From assembly GCA_023140175.1 (NCBI GenBank), contig JAGLMD010000057.1:1-51144 (forward strand): a stretch of 51,144 nt of DNA. Reading direction: 5' to 3'. Below are positions 7,640 to 39,593 of the stretch, piece after piece. The position numbers and the translations under genes are program-made. This DNA is from Nanobdellota archaeon (lineage in GTDB: Archaea > Nanobdellota > Nanobdellia > Woesearchaeales > WJIZ01). The notes below the pieces were generated by a model that searched no databases, was not told where the DNA came from, and worked only from the letters and a program-made list of their open reading frames with translations. The stretch's first letter is position 1. Each line of letters begins with the position of its first letter.

Positions 7640-7756
7640 TTTTCCAGCCGCTTACTGTAGAAGGAGCTAAAATTTCGCTTTCTAAGTGTGCACATTTAGG
7701 GGTTCACTCCAAAGAACTAAAAATATTATTCCTAAACTCAATAACTTCATAGTAAT

Positions 7757-8395: not shown

Positions 8396-8404
8396 TTTTC
8401 TCAC

Positions 8405-8450: not shown

Positions 8451-8577
8451 CTTTCGTTAATTTTTCTCTCTTTTTGTCGGTTCTCTTCACATCAACGAAT
8501 GATAACTTCTAAGCATAAACCTCTTCTCTTTTTATTGGATTATTAAATCAACAATGATAAGAAAGTAATATTTTGCT

Positions 8578-8604
8578 TTACTCCTGCTTTCATAGCAGGA
8601 GTAA
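8578..8604. terminator. Perfect 10-bp hairpin in an intergenic gap
   Basis: TTACTCCTGC (8578-8587) and GCAGGAGTAA (8595-8604) form a perfect 10-bp stem with loop TTTCATA. No intact gene ends just before it on either strand. It precedes a kinase-like pseudogene and could be an orphan terminator or the remnant of a repeat. The rest of 8451-8665 shows nothing else recognisable. Confidence 0.4.
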
Positions 8605-8665
8605 TCCCTCCAAGGCTGCTCTTAGAGCAAAGAAGTTCCTGTGCATCTCATAGGGCTTATCATAA

Positions 8666-8932
8666 AATGCCCCGGATTTTCTTATAATAGTAAATGCAAA
8701 TGCAGATCTAATAGCCTCAAGAGCAAAAAAAGACAGCAATGGGATATTTGACAATCTCTTCTTCCAGAGAAGAATAGAAGAACGTTTTGAATCAGGATGG
8801 TTAAAACAGATATTTGAAAGATTTGGCTCAAAAGTCCTCTATTTAGATGGAAATTGCTCAATCTCAGAACTGAAAGAAAAGGCTTTAAAACTGTTTAAGG
8901 ATTATGTTTTAGAAGGCCAGAAAACCCTATGA
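8666..8932 (+). pseudogene. C-terminal remnant of a thymidylate/deoxynucleoside kinase-like protein
   Basis: Translation from 8666 without any start codon gives about 88 residues up to TGA at 8932. It contains PDFLIIVNANADLIASR, a basic LID-like region, FFQRRIEERFESGWLKQIFE and VLYLDGNCSISELKEKAL. This is the pattern of the C-terminal half of P-loop dTMP or deoxynucleoside kinases (PD-hydrophobic-D...R, then a final acidic strand-helix). A TAA lies just upstream; a one-base shift would join it to a preceding reading with HKMP. The P-loop half is absent. Assignment to the kinase family is tentative. Confidence 0.45.
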
Positions 8933-8958
8933 TTCTTTTTATATTCACCCCCCAAAAC

Positions 8959-8996
8959 CTTTATAAATTACACTAATTTTCAACTCAAGAGGGGAA
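8959..8996 (+). promoter_or_regulatory. Promoter and ribosome binding site of operon B
   Basis: CTTTATAAATT (8959-8969) preceded by an AAAAC BRE-like element is a good archaeal TATA box. A start about 25 bases downstream falls near 8989, just at GAGGGGAA, which serves as the ribosome binding site before ATG 8998. The leader would be only about 10 bases long. Confidence 0.6.
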
Positions 8997-8997
8997 A

Positions 8998-10152
8998 ATG
9001 GACTTTAACTTCACTAAAAAACAACACCTGCTAAAGCAGACTATAGATGAATTCTGTGAAAAAGAGATAGTTCCATATGCAGATGATATTGACCATGAGC
9101 AGATATTCCCGGAAAAGCAGATAAAACTTCTTTCAAAGATGGGCATAATGGGTATGTCTATTCCAAAAGAATATGGCGGCGCGGAATTAGATAATGTTTC
9201 CCAGACAATAATAATGGAAGCAGTCTCAAAAGCCTGCGCCTCTACCTCTGTAACCATGGGTGCTCATACTTCATTAACTTGCTTTCCATTGGTTGCTTAT
9301 GGCACAAAGGACCAGAAACAAAGATTTCTTCCAAAGCTTGCATCTGGCGAATATCTGGGAGCATTCGCTCTTACAGAGCCAAACGCAGGCTCAGACGCAT
9401 CTAATGTAGAAACAACAGCTGTAAAAGACGGCGATGAATATATCATAAACGGCTCAAAGATATTCATAACTAACGGTGGTAAAGCAGATTTAATAAATAT
9501 AGTAGCTACAACAGACAAATCAAAAAAGCACCACGGCATATCAATCTTCACAGTAGAAACAAAAAAGGCAAAAGGATTTGAGATTGGCAAAAAAGAAGAC
9601 AAATTAGGCCTGAGAGGCTCAAATACCAACGAGATAATATTCAAAGATATGCGCCTTCCCAAAGAAAACCTTGTCGGCGGCATAGAAGGGATGGGTTTCA
9701 AGATAGCTATGGGTGTATTTGATTCAGGAAGAATTGGCATAGGTGTTCAGGGAGTAGGTATTGCTCAGGCAGCTTTTGATAAGGCTTTGCAGTATGTCAA
9801 TGAAAGAGAACAATTCGGAAGAAAACTTGCTAAATTCCAGGCAATGCAATTCTATTTAGCAGATATGGCAACAAGGATAGAGGCAGCCAGGTTGCTTTGT
9901 TATAAAGCAGCTTTCATAAAAGATCAAAAGAAAAAATATGCCCAGGTTGCAGCCATGGCCAAGCTTTATGGCTCTGAAGTTGCAATGTATTGTTCAAGGC
10001 TTTCTTTGCAGATTCATGGCGGTTACGGATTCATAAAAGATTATCCATTAGAAAGATTCTATAGAGATGCAAAAATAACAGAAATATATGAAGGGACATC
10101 AGAGATAATGAAGCTGGTTATAGCTGCCAATTTATTGGGAAAGGGATTCTAA
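8998..10152 (+). CDS. acd: Acyl-CoA dehydrogenase / enoyl-CoA reductase candidate
   Basis: A full-length 384-aa member of the FAD-dependent acyl-CoA dehydrogenase family. It has FALTEPNAGSDAS (substrate and FAD contact), IFITNGGKADL, REQFGRKLAKFQA, QIHGGYGFIKDYPLERFYRDA, and EIYEGTSEIMK with catalytic base Glu365 at the position used by short/medium-chain and butyryl-CoA dehydrogenases. It oxidises acyl-CoA to enoyl-CoA, or with low-potential electrons through ETF can run in reverse. It is followed without a gap by etfB and etfA, its electron partners, then by glycerolipid acyltransferases, a context that points to reduction of enoyl-CoA for lipid synthesis. No CoA ligase or crotonase is nearby to support degradation. 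Direction is an inference. Confidence 0.92.
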   Translation: MDFNFTKKQHLLKQTIDEFCEKEIVPYADDIDHEQIFPEKQIKLLSKMGIMGMSIPKEYGGAELDNVSQTIIMEAVSKACASTSVTMGAHTSLTCFPLVAYGTKDQKQRFLPKLASGEYLGAFALTEPNAGSDASNVETTAVKDGDEYIINGSKIFITNGGKADLINIVATTDKSKKHHGISIFTVETKKAKGFEIGKKEDKLGLRGSNTNEIIFKDMRLPKENLVGGIEGMGFKIAMGVFDSGRIGIGVQGVGIAQAAFDKALQYVNEREQFGRKLAKFQAMQFYLADMATRIEAARLLCYKAAFIKDQKKKYAQVAAMAKLYGSEVAMYCSRLSLQIHGGYGFIKDYPLERFYRDAKITEIYEGTSEIMKLVIAANLLGKGF

Positions 10153-10932
10153 ATGAAAATAGTAGTATGTATGAAACAAGTACCAGATACAAATGAGATT
10201 AAGATAGATCAAAAAACAGGCACCTTGCAGAGAGAAGGCGTTCCTTCGATCATGAACCCAGAAGATAAGCATGCTTTATTAGCAGCATTAAATATAAAAG
10301 ACGCAGAAGTAATTGCACTATCAATGGGCCCACCTCAAGCTGAGATGATCTTAAGAGAAGCCCTTGCATACGGAGCAAACAAAGCCATCTTATTATGCGA
10401 TTTTGCCTTCGCAGGCTCAGACACAGCCGCAACATCATATACATTATCTAAAGCAATTGAAAAAATAAATCCAGATTTAATAGTATGTGGAAGACAGGCC
10501 ATTGATGGCGACACAGCGCAAGTAGGCCCGCAAATAGCCGAACTCCTGAATTTACCCCAAGCAACCTATGTTCAAAAGATAATAAAACTGGATAATGAAA
10601 AAGTAGAAATCCAGAAAGAAACAGAAATAGGCTATGATATAATGGAGCTAAATCTGCCGGCATTAATAACCTGTACCAATGACATATCAGAGATTGATTA
10701 TCCAAGCTTGCAGGGAATAAGCAAAGCATTCGAAGAAAACATAGAAACATGGAAAGCCACAGACTTGAAAGCAGATAAAGAAAGGCTTGGATTAAATGGT
10801 TCCCCTACCTGGGTAAACAAATCATTCACTCCCACTCATCAAAGACAAGGCAATATCCTTAAAGGCAATGTCAAGGAATTAGCTAAACAATTGGCAAAAG
10901 AATTCATCAGAAAAGAAATTGTAAAGGAATAA
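10153..10932 (+). CDS. etfB: Electron transfer flavoprotein beta subunit
   Basis: A 259-aa EtfB. The start MKIVVCMKQVPDTNEIKID, the segment MNPEDKHALLAAL, the GANKAILL strand and LIVCGRQAIDGDTAQVGPQIAELL are typical of the family. EtfB with EtfA carries FAD and AMP or a second FAD, and passes electrons between acyl-CoA dehydrogenases and quinone oxidoreductases, ferredoxin or NADH. It starts at the base after the acd stop, and etfA begins one base after its own stop. Whether the complex bifurcates electrons cannot be decided here; modelling of the second nucleotide site would be needed. Confidence 0.92.
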   Translation: MKIVVCMKQVPDTNEIKIDQKTGTLQREGVPSIMNPEDKHALLAALNIKDAEVIALSMGPPQAEMILREALAYGANKAILLCDFAFAGSDTAATSYTLSKAIEKINPDLIVCGRQAIDGDTAQVGPQIAELLNLPQATYVQKIIKLDNEKVEIQKETEIGYDIMELNLPALITCTNDISEIDYPSLQGISKAFEENIETWKATDLKADKERLGLNGSPTWVNKSFTPTHQRQGNILKGNVKELAKQLAKEFIRKEIVKE

Positions 10933-10933
10933 A

Positions 10934-12094
10934 ATGAAAATAAAATTATCAATAAATTACCCCTCTTCAGAGCTTCATATAGGCAATGGTATATTAATAA
11001 ATAAGGAATCTGATTGGTTAGAAGTCGAGGAAACCAAAGAAATCAAAGAAGCAATAGAAAAAGGATTTCTTGAATATGAAGGCAAATTAGAAAAAAAAGA
11101 AGAAAAAAAGGAAAAATCAGATAAAGATGAAATATGGATCTTCGCAGAAGCATTACATGGAAAATTAGCAAGGGTTGTTCTCGAATTATTGGGCAAGGGA
11201 AAAGAGCTTGCAGATTCCCTTAATGTTAAGTTATCTGTAATATTATTGACAGATAAGGACAATTATTCAAAAGAGCTGATTAGCTATGGCGCAGATAAAG
11301 TATATATTCTGGAAAATCCTCTTCTTAAAAACTATGATACTAACTTATTCGCAAAAGTAATTACAGAAGCAATAAAAAATTATGCACCCCAAATAGTTCT
11401 TTACGGCGCTACCCATATTGGCCGTGATCTAGCTCCAAGAATAGCAAGAAGACTTGATACTGGCTTGACAGCAGACTGTACTGGCTTAGATATAACTGAG
11501 AATAATGAGCTATTACAGACCCGGCCGGCTTTCGGTGGTAATCTGATGGCACAGATTTTGTGTAAAAAAAGGCCGCAGATGTCAACTGTCAGGCCAGGCG
11601 TTATGCAGATCATTCCTCAAGATAAAGACAAGAAAGGAGAAATAATCAAACTTGAAATAAAAATTTCTGAATCCGACTTAAGTACAAGATTAAAAGAATC
11701 AGTGAAATCTGCAAAAAAAGTAATTAACCTTGAAGAAGCAGAAATTATTGTATCAGGCGGCCGTGGTCTCTCATCACAAGAGAACTTCCATAAGCTCATA
11801 CCAGCATTTGCAAAAGTCCTTAATGCAGAAATAGGTTCATCAAGGGCAGCTGTTGATGCGGGCTGGATAGAAAAACCGCACCAGGTAGGTCAGACAGGAA
11901 AGACAGTAAGGCCAAAAGTCTATATTGCCTGCGGAATAAGTGGGGCAATACAGCATCGTGCAGGAATGCAGGATTCAGATTTAATCATAGCAATAAATAA
12001 AGATCCATCTGCACCAATATTCAAGATTGCAGATTATGGTTTCGTAGCTGACATAAATGAGTTTATCCCGGCATTCATAGAATCATTGAAATAA
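10934..12094 (+). CDS. etfA: Electron transfer flavoprotein alpha subunit with charged N-terminal extension
   Basis: A 386-aa EtfA. The C-terminal FAD domain is clear: GSSRAAVDAGW, QVGQTGKTVRPKVYIACGISGAIQH and AINKDPSAPIFKIADYG. The N-terminal alpha/beta domain begins around residue 67 with IWIFAEA. Residues 1-66 are an extension absent from the simplest EtfA proteins. In several anaerobes this place holds a two-cluster ferredoxin domain, but here there are no cysteines; residues 51-64 are a lysine/glutamate-rich run. It probably once was or replaces a redox domain, or acts as a linker. The gene sits between etfB and the plsC genes with 1-2 base gaps. Confidence 0.9.
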   Translation: MKIKLSINYPSSELHIGNGILINKESDWLEVEETKEIKEAIEKGFLEYEGKLEKKEEKKEKSDKDEIWIFAEALHGKLARVVLELLGKGKELADSLNVKLSVILLTDKDNYSKELISYGADKVYILENPLLKNYDTNLFAKVITEAIKNYAPQIVLYGATHIGRDLAPRIARRLDTGLTADCTGLDITENNELLQTRPAFGGNLMAQILCKKRPQMSTVRPGVMQIIPQDKDKKGEIIKLEIKISESDLSTRLKESVKSAKKVINLEEAEIIVSGGRGLSSQENFHKLIPAFAKVLNAEIGSSRAAVDAGWIEKPHQVGQTGKTVRPKVYIACGISGAIQHRAGMQDSDLIIAINKDPSAPIFKIADYGFVADINEFIPAFIESLK

Positions 12095-12096
12095 AA

Positions 12097-12756
12097 ATGG
12101 CATATCCTTTTGCAAAAATTTTTCTTGGTAGTTTTATAAGGTTATACATGCGAAAGACAACAGGCATAGAGAATATTCCAAAAAACAAAGCATATATCGT
12201 AGCTCCAAACCATTCAAGCTATGCTGATGATCTTATTGCACCATATACTATGATAGCATATGGAAAAAAGAAGCTGCATATTTTTGTTAACTCAAGATTC
12301 TACAAAAATTTTTTTTTAATAAAATTACTGGATCATTTCGGCTGCATCAGGGTTGATGTAAGCAAAGATGTAAAAGACGAAGAAAAAAGAAAAAAGACAA
12401 ATGAAAAAGCATTTAAGATTGCCCTGGAAGGCCTTAAAAATGGTGATATTCTCATTATATTTCCAGAAGGAGGAAGAAGCCAAAACGGAAAATTGAAAAA
12501 AGCAAAAACAGGGATTGCTAAAGCAGCACTGGCTGCAAAGGTGCCTGTTCTGCCAATGGGTATAAAAGGTTCATATGAAATTATGCCAAAAGGCGCAAAA
12601 CTCCCTAAATTTAAGAAGGCAGATATTATAATCGGCAAGCCGATGTATTTTGATAAATATTATGGAAAAGAGAAAGATTATAAAACACTCGAGACAGTTA
12701 CCACATTGATCATGAAGGAAATCGCAAAGTTAACAAATCAGGATTATAATTATTAA
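12097..12756 (+). CDS. plsC: PlsC-type 1-acyl-glycerol-3-phosphate acyltransferase, copy 1
   Basis: A 219-aa member of the PlsC/LPLAT family. The catalytic HX4D motif is His39-Asp44 (NHSSYAD), the glycerol-phosphate-binding motif is FPEGGRS, and VPVLPMGIKGS is the fourth conserved block. The N-terminal hydrophobic stretch (about 1-17) would anchor it at the membrane. The family transfers an acyl group from acyl-CoA or acyl-ACP to the glycerol backbone of lysophosphatidic acid. It is in one operon with acyl-CoA dehydrogenase and ETF upstream and a second PlsC and GpsA downstream. Acyltransferases of this type belong to bacterial and eukaryotic, not archaeal ether-lipid, membranes. Confidence 0.9.
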   Translation: MAYPFAKIFLGSFIRLYMRKTTGIENIPKNKAYIVAPNHSSYADDLIAPYTMIAYGKKKLHIFVNSRFYKNFFLIKLLDHFGCIRVDVSKDVKDEEKRKKTNEKAFKIALEGLKNGDILIIFPEGGRSQNGKLKKAKTGIAKAALAAKVPVLPMGIKGSYEIMPKGAKLPKFKKADIIIGKPMYFDKYYGKEKDYKTLETVTTLIMKEIAKLTNQDYNY

Positions 12757-12757
12757 A

Positions 12758-13399
12758 ATGGCATACCAAATAACAAGCAGGGTTATTTCACTTCTAATTA
12801 AGCCATGGACAGGGCTGTGTACAGGAATCCATAATATACCTGCTGATAAAGGTGTTATCCTTGCTGCAAACCATTCATCTTATCTTGACCATTTTATCGT
12901 AGGCTGTAGTATCTTTCTAAACCTGAATAAAGCTGCATATTATCTTGCTAAGAAAGAGCACTTTGATACATTTTTCCAAAGAAAATGGCATCAATTCCTG
13001 CCAGCCATACCTATAGATAGGGAAACATGCGGCAGAGAAGCATTATCAAAAGCAGTAGAACATCTCAAGAAAGGGAATTTAATTATGATATATCCAGAGG
13101 GAACAAGAACCATTACAGGTAAGATGAATCGTGCTAAAACAGGAGTAGCAAGATTAGCATTAGCCGCAAAAGCCCCGGTAATACCCATGGGTATTACAAA
13201 TACCTTCAAAATTTGGCCCAAGGAAAAAAAAATACCCAGATTTGGAAAGAAAGCAGATTTAAATATAGGAAATCCGCTTTATTTCGATAAATACTATGGA
13301 AAAGATGATGACAAAAAAGCATTGAGAAAAGTAACAACACTAATAATGAATGAAATAGCAAAACTTTCGCATCAAAAATATGAATTCGATCAGGAATAA
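12758..13399 (+). CDS. PlsC-type acyltransferase, copy 2
   Basis: A 213-aa paralogue starting one base after the first plsC. HX4D is His39-Asp44 (NHSSYLD), at exactly the same positions as in copy 1; YPEGTRT and VIPMGITNT are the later motifs. The C-terminal segment PLYFDKYYGK is shared with copy 1 (PMYFDKYYGK), so the two come from a duplication. Two acyltransferases could acylate the sn-1 and sn-2 positions of glycerol 3-phosphate in turn, which would replace PlsB or PlsX/PlsY, none of which is seen here. Which position each serves is not predictable. Confidence 0.9.
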   Translation: MAYQITSRVISLLIKPWTGLCTGIHNIPADKGVILAANHSSYLDHFIVGCSIFLNLNKAAYYLAKKEHFDTFFQRKWHQFLPAIPIDRETCGREALSKAVEHLKKGNLIMIYPEGTRTITGKMNRAKTGVARLALAAKAPVIPMGITNTFKIWPKEKKIPRFGKKADLNIGNPLYFDKYYGKDDDKKALRKVTTLIMNEIAKLSHQKYEFDQE

Positions 13400-13404
13400 C
13401 TAAA

Positions 13405-14388
13405 ATGAAAATAGCAATCATTGGTGCAGGAAGCTGGGGCACAACCCTGGCAAATCTTTTGGCAGAAAACAATCCTGATAAAGAAGTTATTTTATGGGCC
13501 AGAGAAACAGAGGTTATAGATTCTATAGAAAATGAAAATGAAAATGAATTATTCTTACCAGGGATAAAACTCTCAGAAAACCTAAAATCAACCGCAGACT
13601 TAGAAAAAGCTGTTTCAGATGCAGATATATTAGTCACAGCGATTCCATCTCAGTTTCTAAGGGAAAAAGCCAAAGAAATAAACAAATATATTAAAGAAAA
13701 CTCTATAATAGTAAATGTAGCAAAGGGATTTGAAATTGATACTTTTAAGAGGATGTCTGAAATATTGAAGGAAGAGCTTCCTCCATCAATTAAAATTGCA
13801 GTTCTCTCCGGCCCAAATCATGCTGAAGAAGTTAGTAGAAAAATCCCAACAGCCACAGTAATAGCCTCAACAGAAACTGATTTAGAAAATCTCAGGAAGA
13901 TTTTTGAGACAGATTATTTCAAAGTATATGCCCATGATGATGTCATTGGCTTAGAAGTTTGTGCTGCAGTAAAGAACATTACTGCAATCGCAACAGGAGT
14001 TATTGCAGCTCTTGGTTTAGGTGATAATGCAACTGGTTCAATAATAACTCTTGGCCTAAGAGAAATGGTCAGATTAGGCAGGCACTTAGGCGCAAGACAG
14101 GAAACATTCTATGGTTTAGCAGGAGTGGGCGACTTAGTAGCTACATGCACATCCAAACTCTCAAGAAATAGAAAAGCAGGTAATTTAATCACAAAAGGCC
14201 TCGATGCTGAAGGAATAATGGAAGCTATGCATGGTATGGTAGCAGAAGGAATAATGACATCTAAGGCAGTCCATGAATATGCAGAAAAAAATAAACTCTA
14301 TTTACCATTGACAGCCCAGGTATATAGCGTTCTTTTTGAAAAAAAAGAATTAAACCAGGCAATAACTGACTTAAAAAAATTAATATAA
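13405..14388 (+). CDS. gpsA: Glycerol-3-phosphate dehydrogenase, bacterial type
   Basis: A 327-aa NAD(P)-dependent sn-glycerol-3-phosphate dehydrogenase. The Rossmann motif GAGSWGTTLA starts at residue 7; LSGPNHAEEV, AAVKNITAIATG with the catalytic Lys, GDNATGSIITLGLREM and FYGLAGVGDLVATC are family hallmarks. It reduces dihydroxyacetone phosphate to sn-glycerol 3-phosphate, the bacterial backbone enantiomer. Archaeal membranes normally use sn-glycerol 1-phosphate from an unrelated enzyme. As last gene of the operon after two plsC genes, it would supply the acceptor for acylation. A catabolic role in glycerol use is less likely in this setting. Confidence 0.93.
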   Translation: MKIAIIGAGSWGTTLANLLAENNPDKEVILWARETEVIDSIENENENELFLPGIKLSENLKSTADLEKAVSDADILVTAIPSQFLREKAKEINKYIKENSIIVNVAKGFEIDTFKRMSEILKEELPPSIKIAVLSGPNHAEEVSRKIPTATVIASTETDLENLRKIFETDYFKVYAHDDVIGLEVCAAVKNITAIATGVIAALGLGDNATGSIITLGLREMVRLGRHLGARQETFYGLAGVGDLVATCTSKLSRNRKAGNLITKGLDAEGIMEAMHGMVAEGIMTSKAVHEYAEKNKLYLPLTAQVYSVLFEKKELNQAITDLKKLI

Positions 14389-21580: not shown

Positions 21581-22858
21581 TTATTGTTGAGTCGGATCAC
21601 TCATTCTTCCTAAAAATAATATGTTTCCAGTTTCTTTTTCCTGAATGATAAATACAAATGGATGATCTGCCATGAACATGTTTGAGAATCCAGCTGATTT
21701 TTCTGCCATTATTACTGCAGTTGCAGCAGCAGCTTCTGTTCCTTCTTCATTAACTTCAACAAAAGCCTGATGGATTACTTGACTAATATAAAGTCTATCT
21801 GTTCCATCCATACCCGAGAAATCTGCAGCCATTGAAAAAGCAGTTGGCATACCCATCTGCTTTAAATCTTCTTTCATAAAGTATTTTGTTTCAAATTTGA
21901 ATTTAGGCATATGTACATCAATCTTTCTTTCTTGAAGTGAATTTCGCCATTCATTAAGTTTTTCAGGAGTAAGTGATTGTTCAAATTCGTCTAAGGTGCC
22001 TTCTCTTGGTAAAAGCACAAGCATAGATAATTCTTCACCTTTGTAAGGCATTTCAAGAATCTGAAGATTTTCTGTTTCTGCATAATTGAATTTTGCTTTT
22101 TCTCCTGTAAGGGTCATCATTTGTGCTTTTACATTTTTAGTAGGAATAACTTTAAAATCAGCTTCTCTAGTTTTCTTTTTGTCAAATTGTAATACCCAAT
22201 CTCCTTTGAAATATATAGCATTTGTTAAAACTAATCTTGTATCCGGCTTTATAACAGGAGGACTTTTTGGTAAAAGCTCTTTAATTTTATTATTGGTTTG
22301 TTCTTCAATAAATGCATTGATGGTTTGCCTTGATTTTTCTGTTTCTTTTTTAAAATCAAGATTTGCTACTTGTCCACCATAATATTGCCCAACTCTAGAG
22401 AAATATTCTTCAAGAAATTGGTAATCATATTGAGCCCATAAAGCATTGCCTGTCATCAATTTATAGGGCTTATCTTTTTTATTTATATTATTATAAATTG
22501 CTGCAGAATTTGGTCTTAATATGCCAAATTCAGGAAAATGAAAAACTGATTGCATTTCTTCAGCTGTTTGTCCTCTGGCTCCCTCATAAGTCATTGCTAA
22601 TGCTGTTGAAATACTATAGGGAGAAAAGAAAATATTTGAATCCTTATATTTAGGATCATCTTTATATTTTGAATATATATCAAAAGCAAATTGATTATTT
22701 GCACTTACAACTTGTTGAATCCCTTGTTGTGTTGAACCAGTATCATCTGTTTGTGGTGGTTGGTCTGGTTGATAGGGAAAAAGAAACAATATTGCTGTAG
22801 CAGTTACAATAGCTGCCATAAGAAGTGCTATTCCGATTGTTAAAAACTTTTTGTTCAT
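21581..22858 (-). CDS. Serpin, membrane-anchored or secreted
   Basis: A 425-aa serine protease inhibitor of the serpin fold. After a short basic start, residues 5-28 are hydrophobic (signal anchor), followed by a Gln/Pro/Thr linker and the serpin core: NIFFSPYSISTALAMTYEGARGQTAEEM, LTNAIYFKGDW, MTLTGEKAKFNYAE, and PFVFIIQEKETGNILFLGRM. The reactive-loop hinge EEGTEAAAATAV is of the inhibitory type. Counting from the hinge as in antitrypsin puts P1-P1' at Lys-Ser, which predicts a trypsin-like target, but the loop is about two residues longer so this is approximate. It acts outside the cell. Archaeal serpins are uncommon. It has no functional neighbour. Confidence 0.93.
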   Translation of the reverse strand: MNKKFLTIGIALLMAAIVTATAILFLFPYQPDQPPQTDDTGSTQQGIQQVVSANNQFAFDIYSKYKDDPKYKDSNIFFSPYSISTALAMTYEGARGQTAEEMQSVFHFPEFGILRPNSAAIYNNINKKDKPYKLMTGNALWAQYDYQFLEEYFSRVGQYYGGQVANLDFKKETEKSRQTINAFIEEQTNNKIKELLPKSPPVIKPDTRLVLTNAIYFKGDWVLQFDKKKTREADFKVIPTKNVKAQMMTLTGEKAKFNYAETENLQILEMPYKGEELSMLVLLPREGTLDEFEQSLTPEKLNEWRNSLQERKIDVHMPKFKFETKYFMKEDLKQMGMPTAFSMAADFSGMDGTDRLYISQVIHQAFVEVNEEGTEAAAATAVIMAEKSAGFSNMFMADHPFVFIIQEKETGNILFLGRMSDPTQQ

Positions 22859-29652: not shown

Positions 29653-30564
29653 TTATTTACATTTCTCATGTTTAATTTGCTTTTTCTTTTTAGTTAAATC
29701 GAGGTAGTTATCTTTTGAGATAATGGATTTGCCTGTTTTTTGCTCAATCTCTTCCCTAGTATTCTTTGCTATTGTGCCTCCTTCTTTTGCTGAAGTCTTA
29801 CACTCATTCAAACCATTTGAATCCTTTGAAATTGTAATGTCTGTTGTTGCTTTTTCTCCAACCATTGTCAAAATTAATTCCCAATCTGTCATATGATCTC
29901 TAAGATTTTGATTTTTTCGCTTTAAGCTTTTGAATCTCTTATACTCTTTAACTGTCTTGTCGAATGTGGCCTTCGAAACGCTCAGAAATTAAAAAATTTC
30001 TGGCGCACCAAAAACTTTGTTTTTGAGTGTCTCATTTGTGAGTATTGCAAATTCTTTTTCCTCTTGAATGCCTCTGCTTCCCCATTCATCAGTTAAATCC
30101 TGCCTTATCGCTATTCCCCGTAGTCTTTTGTCAATCCATTCTTTAGGATAGCCTTTAAGCTCATAATACTCTTTTACCCTGTCTTGGGCTAATTCAGGAT
30201 TTTCTATCTCATCAATTCTCTCTTTTCCTACCTGAGCAAGCCATTGCTTAAAAGGCTCTGCTTTCCTTGATGGTATTGACTGAATTATTCTGAACATAGA
30301 TTTGGTATTTGCACAGTCTGTAAGCCTTAATTTGCCATCAAGGGCAGGTAATTTCAACTGGTGACATTTTGTCACCGTTTCACTTCCTTCTTCTCTAAGC
30401 CTTTGATTTAGCTTATTCCAGTATTTTCTTGCTTTTTGGTAATCAGCCTGATCTGTTAGAACAGCAGCTATATCTATCACTGAGTAATGCCACTCTTCAT
30501 TATACCATATTCTCCTGATTTTCTTATCCTGAAAAACGATTAAGGATTTATTGTTTGATTTCAT
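29653..30564 (-). pseudogene. BRO-N-like phage antirepressor-type protein, broken by a frameshift
   Basis: Two collinear fragments make one gene. The 5' part (29989-30564, 191 aa) has IRRIWYNEEWHYSVIDIAAVL, ARKYWNKLNQRL, LRLTDCANTKSMFRIIQSIPS and AEPFKQWLAQVGKERIDEI, the BRO-N/antirepressor pattern. It ends in FGAPEIF and a TAA. The 3' part continues in another frame with SKATFDKTVKEYKRFKSLKRKNQNLRDHMTDWELILTMVGE and a KTGKSIISKDNYL end. Relatives continue smoothly from ILTNE into such a SKATF segment, so about 45 bases, including a hairpin at 29983-30002, appear to have been inserted. The intact protein would be a DNA-binding virus or defence-associated regulator. Confidence 0.72.
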
Positions 30565-30968: not shown

Positions 30969-31421
30969 ATGAAAAATATACATCACATCTGGCTTACTGT
31001 TTATTCAAAACCAGAAGACAATGAATCAGAAATCATTGAAAATCTGAAAAAATTCATCTCTTTTAATTTAGAAAAAGAAAAAGTAAATATAAGCAGAAAA
31101 TCAGCCGCAAGCGTTGAAGAAAGAAAAATAGTAATATTTCAGATACATCTGGAAAAAAGCAGGCATATAAATCAATTTGTTAAAGATATAAACAGCATGC
31201 TAAAGCCAGAACAAAAAGAGCTTCTATTAAACCAAAAAGAATCACGCCTAGACTCAGAAAATCATTTTTTTATAAGATTCGATAAAGACAAATTACTCAA
31301 AGAAAACAAATTCTTTATTACAGACAAAGGAAACTGCTATCATCTGAAGATGTCTATAGCAGCATTTCCTTCAACTAGGGAAAACGCATTGAAGGTTGTG
31401 GAAGCGATTTTTGAGAATTAA
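30969..31421 (+). CDS. DUF54/COG1325 RNA-binding, exosome-associated protein
   Basis: A 150-aa archaeal protein starting with IHHIWLTVYSKPEDNESEII and ending with CYHLKMSIAAFPSTRENALKVVEAI, with SRLDSENHFFIRFDKDKL in the middle. This order is that of the small archaeal RNA-binding family often placed next to exosome genes. It has its own TATA-like promoter and no leader. Its last 47 bases overlap the 3' end of the chorismate mutase gene on the other strand. Its role in RNA metabolism is from family knowledge only. Confidence 0.75.
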   Translation: MKNIHHIWLTVYSKPEDNESEIIENLKKFISFNLEKEKVNISRKSAASVEERKIVIFQIHLEKSRHINQFVKDINSMLKPEQKELLLNQKESRLDSENHFFIRFDKDKLLKENKFFITDKGNCYHLKMSIAAFPSTRENALKVVEAIFEN

Positions 31422-32109
31422 AATATTTCTTCAAAACATATTTTTTCAAATCAGCATTATGAATAGATGGAACTAATATCTTCTCAAAAGATTTTCCTTC
31501 CTTTTTAGCCATTTCCAGAATATAGATTATTTCTAAATCTTTAGTTAACTCAATTATCTCCTTAAAAAAATTAGCTATAGGCTCTTCCTCAATTCCATTT
31601 TTTCCGGCAATATCTATAGCATCAGATATTACCTTTCCTTCCCTGTCATAATTTTCTATTTTTGGCCTTAATTCTTCTCTGCCAACTAATCCATCCAGGC
31701 CGGGCTGATTTATTTTTATCTGCGCCACATATCCGGCAAGACTTAATCTCTTATAGATATATTCAAGCATTACCCTATCCTGGTCTATTAAATAATTATG
31801 ATCAGCCGCTTCCTTGTTTCTGCATAGCTGGCTTAATGTTCTGATATATGAGTCAGCCACTATTTTCCTAAGATTTACTTCTTTATTGATTTGCTTTTGA
31901 AATCCTACTACCTTCTCTGCATATAAATTCGAACTAAACTCATTATAGGTAGGGACTTCACCAGAAACAGGGATATCAGCTATACTGCCTTTAAACAGCG
32001 GGGATTCAGCTCTTTTGCCCAATCCTTTCACTATAGAGCAGGTATATTGATTTAATACTTCCCGGACAAAATCAAGATCATGAGCTGCATCTTTCTGTGC
32101 ATATTTCAT
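31375..32109 (-). CDS. Chorismate mutase, eukaryotic-type AroQ-beta
   Basis: A 244-aa all-helical protein that aligns with yeast chorismate mutase Aro7 end to end apart from a shorter middle. All seven active-site residues known from yeast are in place with the same local spacing: Arg16 (DLDFVREVL), Arg121 and Lys132 (KRLSLAGYVAQIK, 11 apart as R157/K168), Asn153 and Glu157 (as N194/E198), Thr189 and Glu193 (as T242/E246). The enzyme makes prephenate from chorismate for phenylalanine and tyrosine. It lies downstream of an ACT-domain gene and divergent from trpE, so the locus holds both branches from chorismate. The alignment was made from memory of the yeast sequence. Confidence 0.85.
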   Translation of the reverse strand: MKYAQKDAAHDLDFVREVLNQYTCSIVKGLGKRAESPLFKGSIADIPVSGEVPTYNEFSSNLYAEKVVGFQKQINKEVNLRKIVADSYIRTLSQLCRNKEAADHNYLIDQDRVMLEYIYKRLSLAGYVAQIKINQPGLDGLVGREELRPKIENYDREGKVISDAIDIAGKNGIEEEPIANFFKEIIELTKDLEIIYILEMAKKEGKSFEKILVPSIHNADLKKYVLKKYFNSQKSLPQPSMRFP

Positions 32110-32158: not shown

Positions 32159-32794
32159 CTATTCTTTCAGCCTTTTTATTATCTCATATGCCTTAAGGAC
32201 ATACTCTTCTTTAAGATAAATTAGAAGCTCTGGTGTAGCTGTCAAAAGTTCAGTTATCACCGCATCATTTACAGCCAGTTCCCGGGTAATTGTAGATAAT
32301 ATTCCCCTTGCATCAACTGCTTTATCAGGGAACATAAGGCTTATCTCTGAAATATTGTCTAGCCTGTGCTTCAATTTATACTGTCTGAATATTTCTTTCA
32401 ACTTATCCTCTTTTTTCTGGTCTATAAATACTTTGATCGACGATGACCCCACAACAATCTTCAATGTATCTCCCCTATCATAGTCTGTATGTGCAATAAG
32501 CCTTTGCAGTTTCTGCATTAATTCTTTATCTTTCTCAAAATCTAAAATCAGAATCCTATCCTTTATATTAACTCTAATATCCTTAAAAATCTCCATGCTT
32601 TCTTTTTTAGGTTCTTTAAAATTAAACCTTCTGAGCATCGCAATGACAGCCTCAAGTTGATTATTTTTCGCCACCCCCTTCCTAATAAGATGTCTTGCTA
32701 AGCTTCTCCTGTTAATCAATCCTGCTTGATAACACTTCTCAACTTCAGGATATAAGCTGAGAAACTGCCTAAAGCTTTGTTCTATTTGTGACAT
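32159..32794 (-). CDS. ACT-domain protein, possible regulator of aromatic amino-acid genes
   Basis: A 211-aa protein. Residues 1-60 are helical with a possible helix-turn-helix-like segment (INRRSLARHLIRKGVAKNNQLEAVIAML). The C-terminal 70 residues form an ACT domain: ISEISLMFPDKAVDARGILSTITRELAVND and ELLTATPELLIYLKEEYVLKAYEII. ACT domains bind amino acids to regulate enzymes or transcription. Similar small archaeal ACT proteins are known without assigned function. It is upstream of the chorismate mutase gene in the same direction with a 49-base gap, and divergent from trpE, so feedback control is a fair guess. Confidence 0.75.
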   Translation of the reverse strand: MSQIEQSFRQFLSLYPEVEKCYQAGLINRRSLARHLIRKGVAKNNQLEAVIAMLRRFNFKEPKKESMEIFKDIRVNIKDRILILDFEKDKELMQKLQRLIAHTDYDRGDTLKIVVGSSSIKVFIDQKKEDKLKEIFRQYKLKHRLDNISEISLMFPDKAVDARGILSTITRELAVNDAVITELLTATPELLIYLKEEYVLKAYEIIKRLKE

Positions 32795-32902: not shown

Positions 32903-34504
32903 ATGCAAAATTTTCAGGATGAAATAAGAAAAGCAAAAAAAGGAGAAATAGTAACCATATACAAAGAATTAGGCTATACTCCTGATCCTGTAGATTACTT
33001 TGCTAAGATATCGGGCTACGGAAAGAAAAAGAACTGCTTGTTATTAGAATCAGCAGATATAATTGCAAAGTACGGTGAAAAAAGCCTGGGCACAGCAGAT
33101 CCATGCTTAAAATTAGTTGGAAAAAAAGAAGAATTTGAGATAATAGCTTTAAATGACCTCGGAATTAAGTTTATCAAAGAGCTGAAAGGCGATTTGAATT
33201 TTTGTGATGAAATAATCTATGAGACCAACTTAATTAAAGGAAGGCTTACTCCTAAGAGAAAGGCTGTAAATGAAAGCGAGCGTTTGAATCTCAAGACACA
33301 TATAGATATAATCAGAAAAGTAGCATTCAAATTCAAACCCGCAAAAAAAGAGTTTATACCTTATGCCGGCCTATTTGGCTCTATAAGCTATGATTTTATT
33401 GACCAATTTGAAGATTTACCAGAAAGCAAAGAAGATATTCTCCAAGATCCCGATTATGAATTGTATTTTGTAGATAATTTATTCTTAATGGATTATAAAA
33501 AGAAAAAAACATTCTTTATAGCAAACGCCCTTATAACAGATGGTGATAAAGAAAAGATATACGAAGAATGTATGAAGAAAATAGGGGTTTATGAGAAAAA
33601 TCTTGATAAAGAGATTACTAATATAAAGAAAAGAGAGCCGGTAAAACAGGAGATTATCTCTGATACATCAAAAGAGGAATTTATTGAAACAGTTAAGAAA
33701 TTAAAAGGGAATATTTTAGCCGGGGATGTATTTCAGGTTGTGCCTTCAAGAACAATAATTACAAACTATAATGCAGAGCCGCTTGATATATACAAAAGCC
33801 TAAGGGATTTAAACCCAAGCCCATATATGTTTTATATAAACAATCAAAACGGCACTTTTCTCGGTGCTTCTCCGGAAATGTTCCTAAAAGTAGAAGGAGA
33901 CAAAGAAAAAATCGTAGAAATAAGGCCTATCGCAGGCACAAAGCCAAGGGGTATAATTAATGGAAAAGTAGATGCTGATCTGGATTCAAGATATGAAGCA
34001 GAGCTTAAGATTGATAAAAAAGAATTGGCAGAGCATACTATGCTGATAGATTTAGCAAGAAATGATGTAGCCAGGATCTCAAAACCCGGGACAAGATATG
34101 TTGACGAGCCATTTATTGTTGAAAAATATTCTCATGTCCAGCATTTAGTAAGTAATGTAAGCGGTGTTTTAAAGGACAACCTGGATGCTTTGCATGCTTA
34201 CCTGGCTTCAATGAATATGGGTACATTGACAGGCGCTCCAAAAGTTGAAGCAATGAAGCTTATAAGGCTGGTTGAGAAAACCAAGCGCGGGTTTTATGGC
34301 GGCGCTGTAGGCTACATCACGCCAAGCAATGACTTTGATTCCTGCATTGTGATAAGGTCAATGAGATTAAAGAATGATAAGGCTTACATAAGGGCAGGTG
34401 CAGGCATTGTATATGATTCAGTCCCGGAAAAGGAATATGATGAAACAGATAAAAAAGCAGGAGCATGTTTAAAAGCAATACAGCTGGCAGGAGGATTAAC
34501 ATGA
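32903..34504 (+). CDS. trpE: Anthranilate synthase component I
   Basis: A 533-aa chorismate-using enzyme. The C-terminal catalytic part has [66 protein letters not shown] and [21 protein letters not shown], all conserved in TrpE. With TrpG it makes anthranilate from chorismate and glutamine. Start ATG 32903 is chosen since AAGGT lies just upstream and the longer in-frame form has no similarity. It begins the trp operon, which proceeds with ATGA overlaps. TATA-like ATATTTAAATAAG at 32844-32856 fits a start about 25 bases later. Confidence 0.94.
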
Positions 34505-36087
34505 ACATCCTCTTCATTGATAACTTTGATTCATTTACCTATAACCTTGTAGATGAATTTGAGAAAAGAAACTGTAATGTATTAGTGTATAGGAACAATA
34601 CTGATATTGAGATTATAGATAAAGTAATTCAGAAATTCAAACCCAGGCTTATTGTTATAAGTCCCGGCCCCTCAACCCCTGAAAGAGCGGGAATTTCAGT
34701 AGGCTTAATAAAAAAGTACTATAAGGCAGTACCTATATTTGGTGTATGTCTTGGCTATCAGTGTATAATTGAAGCCTTTAATGGTGTAGTAGAGAAATGT
34801 TCTGAGACTATCCATGGAAAGCCAAGTTTAATAAATCATAATGCAGAAGGAATTTTTAAAGGACTGGAAAATCCTTTTCAGGCAGGCAGGTATCATTCCT
34901 TAATCGGATCAAAGATTCCGGATGAGCTGGAAATCTCTGCAAAAACAGCAGATAAGAATCTGGTGATGGCAGTAAAGCATAAGCAGTATAATCTTGTCGG
35001 TGTTCAATTTCATCCAGAAAGTATTTTAACACCTGCAGGTGGAAAAATCATTGAAAATATTATTGGGGGTTGTAAAATGATCCAGGAAGCAATATCTAAA
35101 TTAGTAGAAAAAAAAGATCTCACTTTAAAAGAAGCAGAAGATGTCATGGACGAAATCATGTCAGGCCAGGCTACAGATGCTCAAATAGCTGGTTTTTTAG
35201 TGGCATTAAGGCTGAAAGGCGAAACAATAGATGAAATCACAGCATGTGCAAAAGTCATGCGTGAAAAAGCCTCAGGAATATCTCCCAAAGTAGAAAAACT
35301 AGTCGATGTTGTAGGAACAGGAGGCGATAATTCCAACACCTTTAATATCTCAACTGCTTCTGCCTTTGTTGTAGCTGGCGCAGGTGTTCCGGTAGCAAAG
35401 CACGGAAATAAATCAGTTTCTTCAAAATCTGGAGCCGCAGATGTTTTAACCTCATTAGGTGTGAATATAATGCTTGAACCAAAGCAAGTTGAGAAATGCA
35501 TAGAAGAAATAGGCATTGGCTTTATGTTTGCTCCCAAATTTCATAGCGCTATGAAATATGCAATTGGCCCCAGAAAAGAGCTAAAATTAAGAACAGTCTT
35601 TAACATATTAGGCCCTTTAACAAATCCAGCTAGTGCAGAACATGAGCTCATGGGTGTTTTTGATGAAAGCCTTACAGAGCCTTTGGCAAAAGTTCTGGCT
35701 AACCTCGGAGTAAAGCATTCCTTAGTTGTTCACGGCTCTGGCATGGACGAAATCACTTTAACAGGCCCGACTAAGATATCAGAATACAAAGATGGTGTTA
35801 TAAAGACATATACTATCAATCCTGAAGATTTCGGTATGGAGATATGCACCAAAGAAGATATAATGGGCGGCACACCAGGGGAAAATAAGGATATTATTCT
35901 AAATATCTTAAAAGGCAGAGAAAAAGGCGCCAAAAGAGACATAGTTGTCCTAAATGCAGCAGCTGCTTTACTGGCTGCAGATGAAGTAGATAGCATCAAA
36001 GAAGGAATTAAAAAAGCCGAAGAAAGCATTGATTCAGGAAAAGCATTAGAAAAATTGGAAAAAATGATAGAATTCACGAACAAATGA
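34501..36087 (+). CDS. trpGD: Anthranilate synthase glutaminase fused to anthranilate phosphoribosyltransferase (TrpGD)
   Basis: A 528-aa fusion. Residues 1-190 are the glutaminase Trp[27 protein letters not shown], nucleophile Cys83 in FGVCLGYQ, and QFHPESI. Residues about 195-528 are Trp[46 protein letters not shown] and [10 protein letters not shown] for PRPP and anthranilate. The first half supplies ammonia to TrpE; the second attaches ribose phosphate. GGAGGA precedes ATG 34501, overlapping the trpE stop. Separate trpG and trpD are common in archaea, so the fusion, familiar from enterobacteria, is notable. Confidence 0.95.
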
Positions 36088-37460
36088 TTCTAAATAAAAT
36101 AACTGCCTTTAAGAAGAGAGAAGTAGCTAAAAACAAAAAACTTTTCCCTTTATCTAATTTCAAATCCAGGCTTAAGAAATCAGATAGAGATTTTAAAAAG
36201 GCTGTATCAGAGAACTCTTTAAATTTGATCGCAGAAATAAAAAAAGCCTCTCCTTCTGAAGGCATAATCAATAAAAACTTTAATTTTGAAAAAATTGCCG
36301 AAACATACAGCAAAAACCAGCATGTAAAAGCAATTTCTGTTTTAACAGATGTTAAATTCTTCGCAGGCAGAAAAACACTGATTCATGCAGTAAAAAAATT
36401 CACTGAAAAACCAATTTTAAGAAAGGATTTCATCATTGACAAATACCAGATATATGAATCAAGATTTTATGGCGCAGATGCCCTCTTGCTTATTGCAGGA
36501 ATCCTGACAAAAAAACAGCTTGAGAAATTCATTAAAATAGCAAAGAGATATGATATGGACTGCTTAGTCGAGATTCATAATAAAGAAGAAATAGCAAAGC
36601 TTCCAAATAGCACAGAAATCATCGGTATAAACAACCGTAATCTGGACACATTAAGCATCAATCTAGAAACAACAAATAAACTAGTGAAATTAATCAATAA
36701 AAAACTAAAGAATAAAGTAATTGTCTCAGAGTCAGGAATCAACAGCAGGGCAGACATAAATAAAATCCAGGACAAAGTAAATGCAGTCTTGATTGGCACT
36801 TCATTGATAAAATCAAAAGATATAAACTCAAAGATAAATTCTTTATTTAAGCCAAAAATAAAGATCTGCGGAATAACTAACTTAGAAGATGCTAAAGCTG
36901 CTTCAAAATTAGGGGCAGATTATCTTGGTTTTATTTTCTATAAAAGATCACCCCGTTATATAGGTGAGGACAAGGCAAAAAACATAATAAGCCAAATAAA
37001 AAAATCAAACAAAGATATAAAATTTGCAGGAGTATTTGTCAATGAATCAATTGAAAAAATCAGCAAAATCAAGAAATACAGTAACCTGGACTTTATCCAG
37101 TTTCACGGTGACGAAACTAATGATTTTATCAAAAAACTGAATGAAAAAAATATAATAAAAGCATTCAGGGTAAGAAATAACCAGGATATTAGAGAAATAA
37201 ATAATTCCTTAGCAAAATATGTCCTGTTAGATGCCTATCATAAAAGTTTATACGGTGGAACAGGCAGCACATTCAATTGGGGCATAATGCCTAAAATAAG
37301 AAACAAAAAAATATTTTTGTCAGGCGGCCTAAATCCTGATAATATAAAAAAAGCAGTAAAATTAAATACATATGCAATTGACTTGTCTTCAGGTGTGGAA
37401 AAATCTCCCGGTAAAAAGGATCATAAAAAATTAAAAAAATTATTTAAGAATTTAAAATGA
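36084..37460 (+). CDS. trpCF: Indole-3-glycerol phosphate synthase fused to phosphoribosylanthranilate isomerase (TrpCF)
   Basis: A 458-aa fusion. Residues 1-250 are Trp[56 protein letters not shown] and [11 protein letters not shown]. Residues 255-458 are Trp[55 protein letters not shown] and LSGGLNPDN. Together they convert N-(5-phosphoribosyl)anthranilate to indole-3-glycerol phosphate. It overlaps trpGD and trpB by four bases (ATGA). The domain order is that of the enterobacterial fusion. Confidence 0.95.
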
Positions 37461-38641
37461 AAAAAGGCTATTTTGACAAATATGGCGGTGTATATGTTTC
37501 CGAAACACTAATGCCTGCTGTACAGGAATTAGAAAAGGCCTTTAATAAATGCAAAAATGATAAAAAATTTAATAATGAATTAAACAATCTACTCAAAAAT
37601 TATGCCGGAAGGCCGACTCCCCTCTCATTCTGCGAAAGATTATCTAAAAAATTGGGATGCAAAATTTATCTTAAAAGGGAAGATTTGGCGCACACAGGAG
37701 CACACAAGATAAATAATGCACTGGGCCAGGCTCTACTAGCAAAATACATGGGCAAAAAGAGAATAATTGCAGAAACAGGCGCAGGCCAGCATGGTGTTGC
37801 AGCAGCAACAGCCGCAGCTAAACTTGGCCTGGAATGCGAAATATATATGGGCACCATTGATATTGAAAGGCAAAAGCCAAATGTTTTTAGAATGAAGCTC
37901 CTCAGTGCAAAGGTAAATCCTGTTTCTTCAGGCGGCAGGACCTTAAAAGATGCTATTAATGAAGCCTTAAGAGACTGGACAGCCAATGTTAAAACAACAT
38001 ACTATCTATTGGGCTCTGTATTGGGGCCGCATCCATACCCGGAAATGGTTGCTCATTTTCAGAGCATTATTGGAAAAGAGACGAGAAAACAGATCCTGGC
38101 AGCTGAAGGTAAATTGCCTAATGCAATCATAGCATGTGTTGGCGGCGGCTCTAATGCAATCGGAATTTTCAGGGCGTTCTTAAAAGATAAAGATGTAGAT
38201 TTGATTGGCGTAGAAGCAGGCGGACTTGGTATAGAATCAGGAAAACACGCAGCAAGATTTGCAGACCAAAAATTAGGCCGTTTAGGCATTTTGCATGGAA
38301 CAATGACCTATGTCCTGCAGGACAAGTTTGGCCAGATTTATAACACTCATTCAATCTCCGCAGGCCTTGATTATTCTGCAGTCGGCCCAGAACATTCGCA
38401 TTTAAGAGACTTAAAAAGAGCAGCATATACTTTTGCAACAGATAAAGAATGTTTAGAAGCATTCAAATTATTATCTGAAGAAGAAGGCATTATCCCTGCA
38501 CTCGAGTCAGCCCACGCAGTTGCTTATGCCCTTAAATTAGCTAAAAAAATGAATAAAGAAGATATCATAGTCATTAATTTATCCGGAAGAGGGGATAAAG
38601 ACATCTTTGAAGCTGCAAGGCATTTAGGTGTTAAAGTATGA
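37457..38641 (+). CDS. trpB: Tryptophan synthase beta subunit
   Basis: A 394-aa PLP enzyme of the main TrpB1 type. Lys84 in [17 protein letters not shown] is the Schiff-base lysine; [41 protein letters not shown] and [13 protein letters not shown] are conserved. It joins indole and serine into tryptophan, with indole coming through a tunnel from TrpA. It overlaps trpCF by four bases. A small GNAT remnant separates it from trpA with ATGA overlaps on both sides. Confidence 0.96.
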
Positions 38642-38799
38642 TAATAAGAAAAGCAAAAATAAAAGACATTTCTCATTTATTAGTGCTTTGGGAGGGATTA
38701 ATGCAATATCACAAAGACCTAGATAAAAAAGCCTTTACAACTTGGAAAAAAATGGGTTTTACAGAAGGTGCGAAATCTATATTTAAATCTATAAAATGA
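38638..38799 (+). CDS. Internally deleted GNAT acetyltransferase remnant (53 aa)
   Basis: A 53-aa reading frame between trpB and trpA. Its start overlaps the trpB stop and its stop overlaps the trpA start, both as ATGA. The first 29 residues ([20 protein letters not shown], then LMQYHKDLD) look like the beginning of a GNAT acetyltransferase; the last 24 ([21 protein letters not shown]) look like the usual GNAT end, where a Tyr/Trp-K-x-GF motif is normal. The acetyl-CoA loop (RxxGxG/A) in between is missing. It cannot be an active enzyme but keeps the frame and translational coupling intact. Confidence 0.6.
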
Positions 38800-39593
38800 G
38801 CTACAAAAAAACCTTTTCAGAACTAAAAAAGAAAAAACAAAAAGCATTAATCCCATTCGTAGTAATTGGAGATCCAGACTATGAAACAAGCTTAAGAATA
38901 GTCAGAACAATAGTTGAAGCAGGAGCAGATATTTTAGAGCTGGGCTTTCCATTTTCAGATCCGATTGCAGACGGTCCAATAATACAATCTGCAGATGTAA
39001 GGGCACTAGAAAGCGGGATAAACACAGATAGTTGTCTAAGATTCATTAAAGAAGTAAGAACTTTTACTGATATTCCTATTGGCTTATTAGTTCATTATAA
39101 TCTTATTTACCAGAGAAGAATAGACAAATTCTTTGAAGATTGTAAAGGAGCAGGAGTTACATCAGTTTTAGCAGCAGATGTCCCAATAGAAGAATCTGAT
39201 TTAATAATAAAAGCCGCAAGAAAAAACAATGTTGATACTGTCTTTATTGTAAGCCCCTTAACAGAAGGCAAAAGATTAGAAAAGATTCTAAAAAACTGCA
39301 GAGGCTTTGTTTATATTGTTTCGAGGCTGGGTGTAACTGGAGCAAGAGATGATTTACAGGAATCAACCTTAAGCCTAATCAAAAGAATAAGAACAAAGAC
39401 AAATCTTCCATTATGTGTTGGCTTTGGCATTTCAAAGCCAGAACATGTTAGGGCAGTATTGGAAGCAGGCGCAGATGGCGCAATTGTGGGTTCTGCAATA
39501 GTAAAAATCATTGAAAAAAATCCAGATAATAAAAACAGGATGTTAGGGGAATTAAGATCCTTTGTTGATAACATGAAGGCAGCAACTAAGTAG
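38796..39593 (+). CDS. trpA: Tryptophan synthase alpha subunit
   Basis: A 265-aa TIM-barrel subunit. Catalytic Glu48 and Asp59 lie in LELGFPFSDPIADGP, with the spacing of the Salmonella enzyme; VSRLGVTGARDDL, VGFGISKPEHV and GADGAIVGSAIV complete the phosphate site. It cleaves indole-3-glycerol phosphate to indole and glyceraldehyde 3-phosphate for TrpB. It is the last gene of the trp operon, with its start overlapping the small GNAT remnant. Confidence 0.95.
   Translation: MSYKKTFSELKKKKQKALIPFVVIGDPDYETSLRIVRTIVEAGADILELGFPFSDPIADGPIIQSADVRALESGINTDSCLRFIKEVRTFTDIPIGLLVHYNLIYQRRIDKFFEDCKGAGVTSVLAADVPIEESDLIIKAARKNNVDTVFIVSPLTEGKRLEKILKNCRGFVYIVSRLGVTGARDDLQESTLSLIKRIRTKTNLPLCVGFGISKPEHVRAVLEAGADGAIVGSAIVKIIEKNPDNKNRMLGELRSFVDNMKAATK

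What the first reader, a model, noticed from the sequence alone, without database searches (positions are those of the whole stretch)
31375..32109. Eukaryotic-type chorismate mutase in an archaeon
The protein aligns with yeast Aro7 and has equivalents of R16, R157, K168, N194, E198, T242 and E246 at matching local spacing. Archaea typically use the short AroQ-alpha form, fused or alone. A stand-alone AroQ-beta protein here may be an ancestral form or transfer, and its shorter middle section lacks part of the region used for allosteric control in yeast.
Basis: partly seen in the sequence, partly recalled or inferred. Interest (0 to 1): 0.68.

Follow-up and report, generated by a model that had tools for sequence, protein, structure and literature searches.

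The report
Stripped-down eukaryote-type chorismate mutase in archaeon
A symbiont-type archaeon carries, beside its tryptophan genes, a second chorismate mutase that is a distant, simplified cousin of the yeast/plant enzyme: it keeps every catalytic residue but has lost the parts that sense tyrosine and tryptophan.

Summary
Confirmed on the minus strand: window 31375-32109 encodes a 244-aa AroQ-fold protein (Pfam CM_2 E=7e-8, above cut-off). A beta profile built without it scores it 51 bits (best of 1000 shuffles 12.5); a local AroQ-alpha profile does not separate it from shuffles. It is divergent: ~22% identity to Aro7 and no hit to the curated eukaryote-type model TIGR01802. Allosteric positions are 0/8, the effector-binding region is 36-38 aa against 58-63, and loop 11-12 is 9 aa against ~20.

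It is not the genome's only mutase: a normal 95-aa AroQ-alpha lies elsewhere. Eukaryote-type mutases, canonical ones included, occur patchily in other Woesearchaeota, an Aenigmatarchaeote and several bacteria. The archaeal ones group together (94/96), so a recent eukaryotic transfer is unlikely. A related genome has the same gene order without this gene, and the gene's last 15 codons are antisense to its neighbour's conserved end, so it was probably inserted beside a TrpY-like HTH-ACT regulator and the trp operon. Best reading: an active, unregulated isoenzyme. Nine other archaea with such mutases lack EPSP synthase.

The parts
31375..32109 (-). divergent AroQ-beta-type chorismate mutase, 244 aa
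   Evidence: Pfam CM_2 7.4e-8; leave-out beta profile 51.4 bits; active site 7/7; predicted fold matches only AroQ-beta enzymes at probability 1.00
31531..32064 (-). span holding the seven active-site codons: R16 32062-32064, R121 31747-31749, K132 31714-31716, N153 31651-31653, E157 31639-31641, T189 31543-31545, E193 31531-31533
   Evidence: alignments
31375..31421 (-). last 15 codons plus stop of the mutase gene, antisense to the conserved 3' end of the convergent RNA-binding-protein gene
   Evidence: sequence and G003 homologue comparison
32159..32794 (-). HTH-ACT-ACT regulator-like protein, 211 aa, 49 bp upstream of the mutase gene, same strand, divergent from trpE
   Evidence: AlphaFold model: N-terminal helices plus two ACT-type folds; Foldseek to aspartokinase regulatory subunits 1.6e-8; ACT_7/ACT hits in homologues; paralogue divergent from dapB-dapA-lysA-like genes in the same genome
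32837..34504 (+). trpE-like anthranilate synthase large subunit (name inferred from sequence and operon position)
   Evidence: homologue in the same divergent place beside the ACT gene in G003 and G053
34465..36087 (+). trpG-trpD fusion
   Evidence: GATase + Glycos_transf_3
36084..37460 (+). trpC-trpF fusion
   Evidence: IGPS + PRAI
37457..39593 (+). trpB (37457-38641) and trpA (38796-39593), named from sequence
   Evidence: ORFs; homologues in order in G003 and G031
30969..31421 (+). convergent RNA-binding (exosome-subunit-like) protein gene; in G003 it abuts the ACT gene directly
   Evidence: PF01877 2.7e-14; synteny

Best explanation
The gene encodes a second, catalytically competent chorismate mutase of the AroQ-beta (eukaryote-type) lineage that has lost Tyr/Trp allostery. 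It should turn chorismate into prephenate with the usual AroQ-beta active site: two arginines and a lysine hold the carboxylates and ether oxygen, and E157, T189 and E193 complete the pocket. It belongs to a patchy archaeal group of beta-like mutases, not to a recent eukaryotic import, and in this lineage it was inserted between an ACT-regulator gene and an RNA-binding-protein gene beside the trp operon. Since the enzyme no longer senses amino acids, the likely control is transcriptional, through the HTH-ACT gene just upstream on the same strand. Shown: family, active-site residues, lost allosteric parts, second AroQ-alpha, absence from the syntenic relative, overlap with the neighbour's 3' end. 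Inferred: activity, direction of the event (gain), co-transcription and Trp-linked control.
For: CM_2 above cut-off. Leave-out beta profile 51.4 bits against best shuffle 12.5; hhalign to canonical beta alone E=2e-6 over 191 columns; local AroQ-alpha profile below several shuffles. Active site 7/7 while allosteric positions are 0/8, effector-binding region 36-38 aa against 58-63, loop 11-12 9 aa against ~20 (regions as defined in PMC12459221). AlphaFold pLDDT 79, pTM 0.80; the 13 best PDB matches, the only ones at probability 1.00, are all AroQ-beta. Substrate is available: DAHP synthase, aroB, aroD/E, aroA and the start of aroC lie on C90, prephenate dehydrogenase and dehydratase on C82, AroQ-alpha on C169. 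In G016 a related divergent beta protein is the only CM_2 hit beside a PDT/PDH pair. Gain at this site: G003 has the same order over ~15 kb without it, and the C-terminal tail is antisense of the neighbour's conserved end. Archaeal grouping 94/96.
Against: No TIGR01802 hit. Branch length of about 4-5 changes per site, so placement is unsure. The fold model used beta homologues in its alignment, Foldseek E-values are only 0.008 or worse, and TM-scores are 0.50-0.61. AroQ-alpha already supplies the activity. E23, invariant in canonical forms, is T. No orthologue with high identity was found, so selection on this very gene cannot be measured. No TGTACA box (the TrpY site as I remember it) lies in the ACT/trpE spacer.
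Confidence: 0.7

Rival explanations
1. It keeps the AroQ-beta fold and pocket but no longer serves prephenate synthesis: an inactive or repurposed paralogue (regulatory partner, or an enzyme on a related substrate such as isochorismate).
For: Redundant with AroQ-alpha. Some archaeal relatives have lost R16 (G031 and G474: A), so drift of the pocket happens in this group. Other archaea with such proteins lack EPSP synthase and, where tested, chorismate synthase. Very fast evolution.
Against: All seven active-site residues kept at ~22% overall identity. The glutamate matching E198 is kept; PMC12329711 reports that isochorismate pyruvate lyase PchB has valine there.
Confidence: 0.2
2. Old vertical AroQ-beta in this archaeal group, lost in relatives such as G001-G006, rather than gained here.
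For: Archaeal beta sequences form one side of a branch (94/96); patchiness can come from loss.
Against: Only 9 of 353 genomes of the order have a strong match. G003 keeps the flanking order with no remnant, and the mutase tail is carved from the neighbour's antisense strand.
Confidence: 0.2
3. Recent transfer from a eukaryote (for example a protist host).
For: Beta-type enzymes are textbook eukaryotic; the lineage lives in association with other cells.
Against: Grouping with eukaryotes costs 11 log units, p-AU 0.051, and it falls with archaeal sequences; no extended identity to any eukaryotic sequence (24% at most).
Confidence: 0.04
4. An AroQ-alpha mutase with extensions, or assembly contamination.
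For: Pfam CM_2 covers all AroQ classes.
Against: AroQ-alpha profile built from its own family does not recognise it. Contig genes are about 35-86% identical to G001/G003 genes, in the same order as in G003.
Confidence: 0.03

Closest known systems
AroQ-beta chorismate mutase (yeast Aro7, plant CM1-3; NCBIfam TIGR01802)
   Same: fold by model, N-terminal R16 helix, R157/K168/N194/E198/T242/E246 equivalents in order
   Different: ~22% identity, below TIGR01802; effector-binding region about 40% shorter, loop 11-12 half length, no allosteric residues; extra ~40-aa C-terminal tail
Canonical archaeal and bacterial AroQ-beta (G086, G204; Lentisphaerota, Kiritimatiellota, Spirochaetota) found here
   Same: same lineage; G086 and G204 score above TIGR01802
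   Different: those keep the 60-aa effector region and most of the effector-site residues
Ustilago Cmu1 (secreted non-allosteric AroQ-beta relative)
   Same: structural match at probability 1.00; allostery-free beta-type
   Different: Cmu1 is a secreted effector; this protein starts MKYAQKDAAHDL with no evident signal peptide
Aenigmatarchaeota 167-aa mini-beta protein (L030)
   Same: keeps RRK-ETE pocket without the regulatory region
   Different: lost the effector region completely (6 aa left against 36-38 here)
TrpY of Methanothermobacter (for the neighbouring ACT gene)
   Same: regulator gene divergent from trpE (PMC6737238)
   Different: two ACT domains and ~211 aa here; homology to TrpY not tested; no TGTACA box

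Membership tests
AroQ-beta (wide sense: lineage) | significant profile match to beta sequences, better than to AroQ-alpha | tested here: met
   51.4 bits to leave-out beta profile, 9.6 bits (within shuffles) to local alpha profile
AroQ-beta (wide sense: lineage) | active-site set R16, R157, K168, E198, T242, E246 (N194 often varies) | tested here: met
   7/7
AroQ-beta (wide sense: lineage) | AroQ-beta fold | tested here: inconclusive
   top 13 PDB matches are all beta, but TM 0.50-0.61, E 0.008 or worse, and beta homologues were in the input alignment
TIGR01802 CM_pl-yst equivalog | score above the curated cut-off of 170.9 bits | tested here: not met
   no match at E<=10; none in G000. Not filed as a TIGR01802 member
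Allosteric AroQ-beta (Aro7/CM1 type) | effector-binding region (yeast 42-104), loop 11-12 and effector-site residues | tested here: not met
   0/8 residues, 36-38 aa and 9 aa
Chorismate mutase (EC 5.4.99.5) | chorismate to prephenate activity | not testable with these tools
   needs assay or complementation
AroQ-alpha | ~90-aa three-helix protein matched by AroQ-alpha profiles | tested here: not met
   best NCBIfam alpha match 24 bits against 67
TrpY (neighbouring gene) | regulator gene divergent from trpE with TRP boxes in the shared promoter | tested here: inconclusive
   divergent place met; TGTACA absent; TrpY sequence not compared

The most novel reading that the evidence does not exclude
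The window protein belongs to an undescribed radiation of allostery-free AroQ-beta mutases in episymbiotic (DPANN) archaea that spreads by insertion and mostly sits in genomes unable to make chorismate. There it would act on chorismate or prephenate taken from a partner cell; in this shikimate-competent genome it was placed under an amino-acid-sensing regulator, so that gene control replaced lost enzyme control.
Probability: 0.2. Interest if true: 0.68.

Novelty: new variant of a known kind. Interest (0 to 1): 0.48.

Why it matters
One of the papers read calls AroQ-beta the elaborate eukaryotic 12-helix mutase, and it is a model for allostery (PMC7762937, PMC12459221). Prokaryotic members, some keeping and some missing the regulatory parts, give a natural series from full (yeast, Lentisphaerota) through reduced (this protein) to minimal (167 aa, Aenigmatarchaeota). 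That makes the order in which allostery was gained or lost testable. Bacterial and eukaryotic forms group apart from the archaeal ones, which bears on where the eukaryotic enzyme came from. Mutases in archaea that appear to lack EPSP synthase pose a metabolic puzzle about use of partner metabolites.

Tried and rejected
(1) Single-sequence searches of relatives and PDB with the protein gave no convincing hit, so profiles were needed. (2) Scans of viral contigs found no relative, so viral carriage despite the nearby Bro-N gene has no support. (3) A first tree with few archaeal sequences did not resolve placement; wider sampling and leaving out three rows (two very divergent archaeal ones and L031) gave the archaeal group. 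(4) My first AroQ-alpha profile held two wrongly oriented reads; redone. (5) TGTACA boxes between the ACT gene and trpE: none. (6) Literature searches for eukaryote-type mutases in archaea, DPANN or Lentisphaerae found no description. PMC4621298 mentions in passing a bacterial protein 37% identical to a fungal Aro7, so prokaryotic AroQ-beta as such is not new. (7) Base composition of the gene (about 32-36% GC) does not stand out.

Full report
OBSERVATION. The ORF lies on the minus strand of 31375-32109 (244 aa, ATG). Pfam CM_2 matches residues 111-193 at 7.4e-8, above its gathering score. Pairwise identity with Aro7 is about 22% and a plain BLASTP gives only 27 bits, so chance had to be tested. 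A beta profile built without the protein scores it 51.4 bits; the best of 1000 shuffles scores 12.5. An AroQ-alpha profile from its own family gives 9.6 bits, below four shuffles. hhalign against canonical beta sequences alone gives E=2e-6 over 191 columns. An AlphaFold model (pLDDT 79, pTM 0.80) has AroQ-beta enzymes as its 13 best PDB matches, all at probability 1.00 and nothing else at that level, although E-values are 0.008 or worse, TM-scores 0.50-0.61, and beta homologues were in the input alignment.

WHAT IS LOST. At the eight yeast effector-site positions checked (E23, D24, R75, R76, N139, G141, S142, T145; list from memory of the Aro7 structures) the protein keeps none. The effector-binding region (yeast 42-104, PMC12459221) is 36-38 residues against 58-63 in canonical forms, and loop 11-12 is 9 against ~20. 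It does not reach TIGR01802, the curated eukaryote-type model, while two other archaeal proteins do (G086 213 bits and G204 202 bits by hmmscan, cut-off 170.9). I therefore do not file it as a TIGR01802 member; it is a divergent relative in the AroQ-beta lineage.

HOST AND PATHWAY. The order includes a Candidatus Woesearchaeota genome (L002 and L021 are contigs of the same length, 11802 bases, with the same protein). The window genome has a complete route to use a mutase: DAHP synthase, aroB, aroD/E, aroA and the start of aroC at a contig end (C90), prephenate dehydrogenase and dehydratase (C82), trpE, trpGD, trpCF, trpB and trpA in the window, and a normal 95-aa AroQ-alpha (C169). Five of the six other genomes of its family that were tested have AroQ-alpha; none has a beta match. 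The beta-like mutase is thus a second enzyme, not a replacement.

NEIGHBOURHOOD. The gene follows, 49 bp downstream on the same strand, a 211-aa protein with N-terminal helices and two ACT-type domains, which is divergent from trpE. This is the arrangement described for trpY and trpE in Methanothermobacter (PMC6737238), and a paralogue in the same genome is divergent from dapB-dapA-lysA-like genes (names from sequence), so a pathway regulator is likely. No TGTACA box lies in the spacer. Co-transcription and control of the mutase by this regulator are inference.

INSERTION. In G003, of the same family, about 15 kb of gene order around trp is the same, but the mutase gene and a Bro-N gene are missing and the ACT gene overlaps the RNA-binding gene's end. 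In the window the last 15 codons and stop of the mutase are antisense to the conserved 3' end of that RNA-binding gene. Gain by insertion explains both; loss without trace in relatives is the rival.

DISTRIBUTION AND TREE. One scan of genome contigs found AroQ-beta in Lentisphaerota, Kiritimatiellota, Spirochaetota, a Woesearchaeote and an Aenigmatarchaeote (not exhaustive, two patterns). A profile search found strong matches in 9 of 353 genomes of the order, in nine families. With this sampling the nine archaeal sequences kept in the tree form one side of a branch (94/96), the protein pairs with G182 (91/68), bacteria and eukaryotes lie together, and forcing it with eukaryotes is nearly rejected (p-AU 0.051). 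Branches are very long, so the deep origin is not settled.

OPEN PUZZLE. None of nine other archaeal genomes with beta-like mutases has a detectable EPSP synthase, and the five tested lack chorismate synthase; three of these also lack prephenate dehydratase and dehydrogenase. One is a single-contig genome (G016) whose only CM_2 hit is the beta-like protein, beside a PDT/PDH pair elsewhere on the chromosome. The rate of such gaps in genomes without beta mutases was not measured, and several of the nine genomes are incomplete, so this is a lead and not an association test.

VERDICT. A real, divergent, allostery-free AroQ-beta-type mutase, most likely active, in a known superfamily. Membership in the lineage is supported, membership in the curated eukaryote-type family is not, and activity is untested.

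Noticed in passing
genomes G016, G053, G086, G182, G204, G031, G441, G474, G226: Archaea with beta-like chorismate mutases but no detectable EPSP synthase; five of them also tested and lacking chorismate synthase; G086, G182 and G204 also lack prephenate dehydratase and dehydrogenase: 'orphan' mutases.
   Followed up: partly
L030 4080-4580: 167-aa minimal AroQ-beta protein in an Aenigmatarchaeote, with the catalytic set but no effector-binding region.
   Followed up: partly
L126 1314-2042; L110 1492-2304: Two archaeal beta proteins (G031, G474) have alanine at the R16 position. The G031 one lies beside trpA-trpB, with an orthologue of the window's ACT regulator on the same contig.
   Followed up: partly
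L019, L020, L022-L026, L028: Bacterial AroQ-beta (Lentisphaerota, Kiritimatiellota, Spirochaetota) group with eukaryotic enzymes rather than with archaeal ones: possible bacterial source of the eukaryotic enzyme.
   Followed up: partly
L027: A 'Gammaproteobacteria' bin contig carries an AroQ-beta with a long Ser/Asn-rich N-terminal extension that groups with plants: probably eukaryotic contamination.
   Followed up: no
29989-30564: Bro-N domain gene absent from the syntenic place in G003; a second insertion near the mutase gene.
   Followed up: partly
31375-31421: Convergent overlap: the mutase C-terminus is encoded antisense to the conserved end of an RNA-binding protein gene.
   Followed up: yes
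86-14388: Bacterial-type lipid and fatty-acid genes in an archaeon: FabA-like, thiolases, acyl-CoA dehydrogenase, two PlsC-type acyltransferases and a bacterial-type glycerol-3-phosphate dehydrogenase.
   Followed up: partly
21581-22858: Complete serpin with an N-terminal hydrophobic segment (Pfam 7e-120).
   Followed up: no
32159-32794 and paralogues on G000 C134, C166, C84: Family of HTH-ACT-ACT proteins in Woesearchaeota, two of them divergent from amino-acid biosynthesis operons (trp, and dapB-dapA-lysA-like genes): candidate amino-acid-sensing regulators matching DUF7523 weakly.
   Followed up: partly
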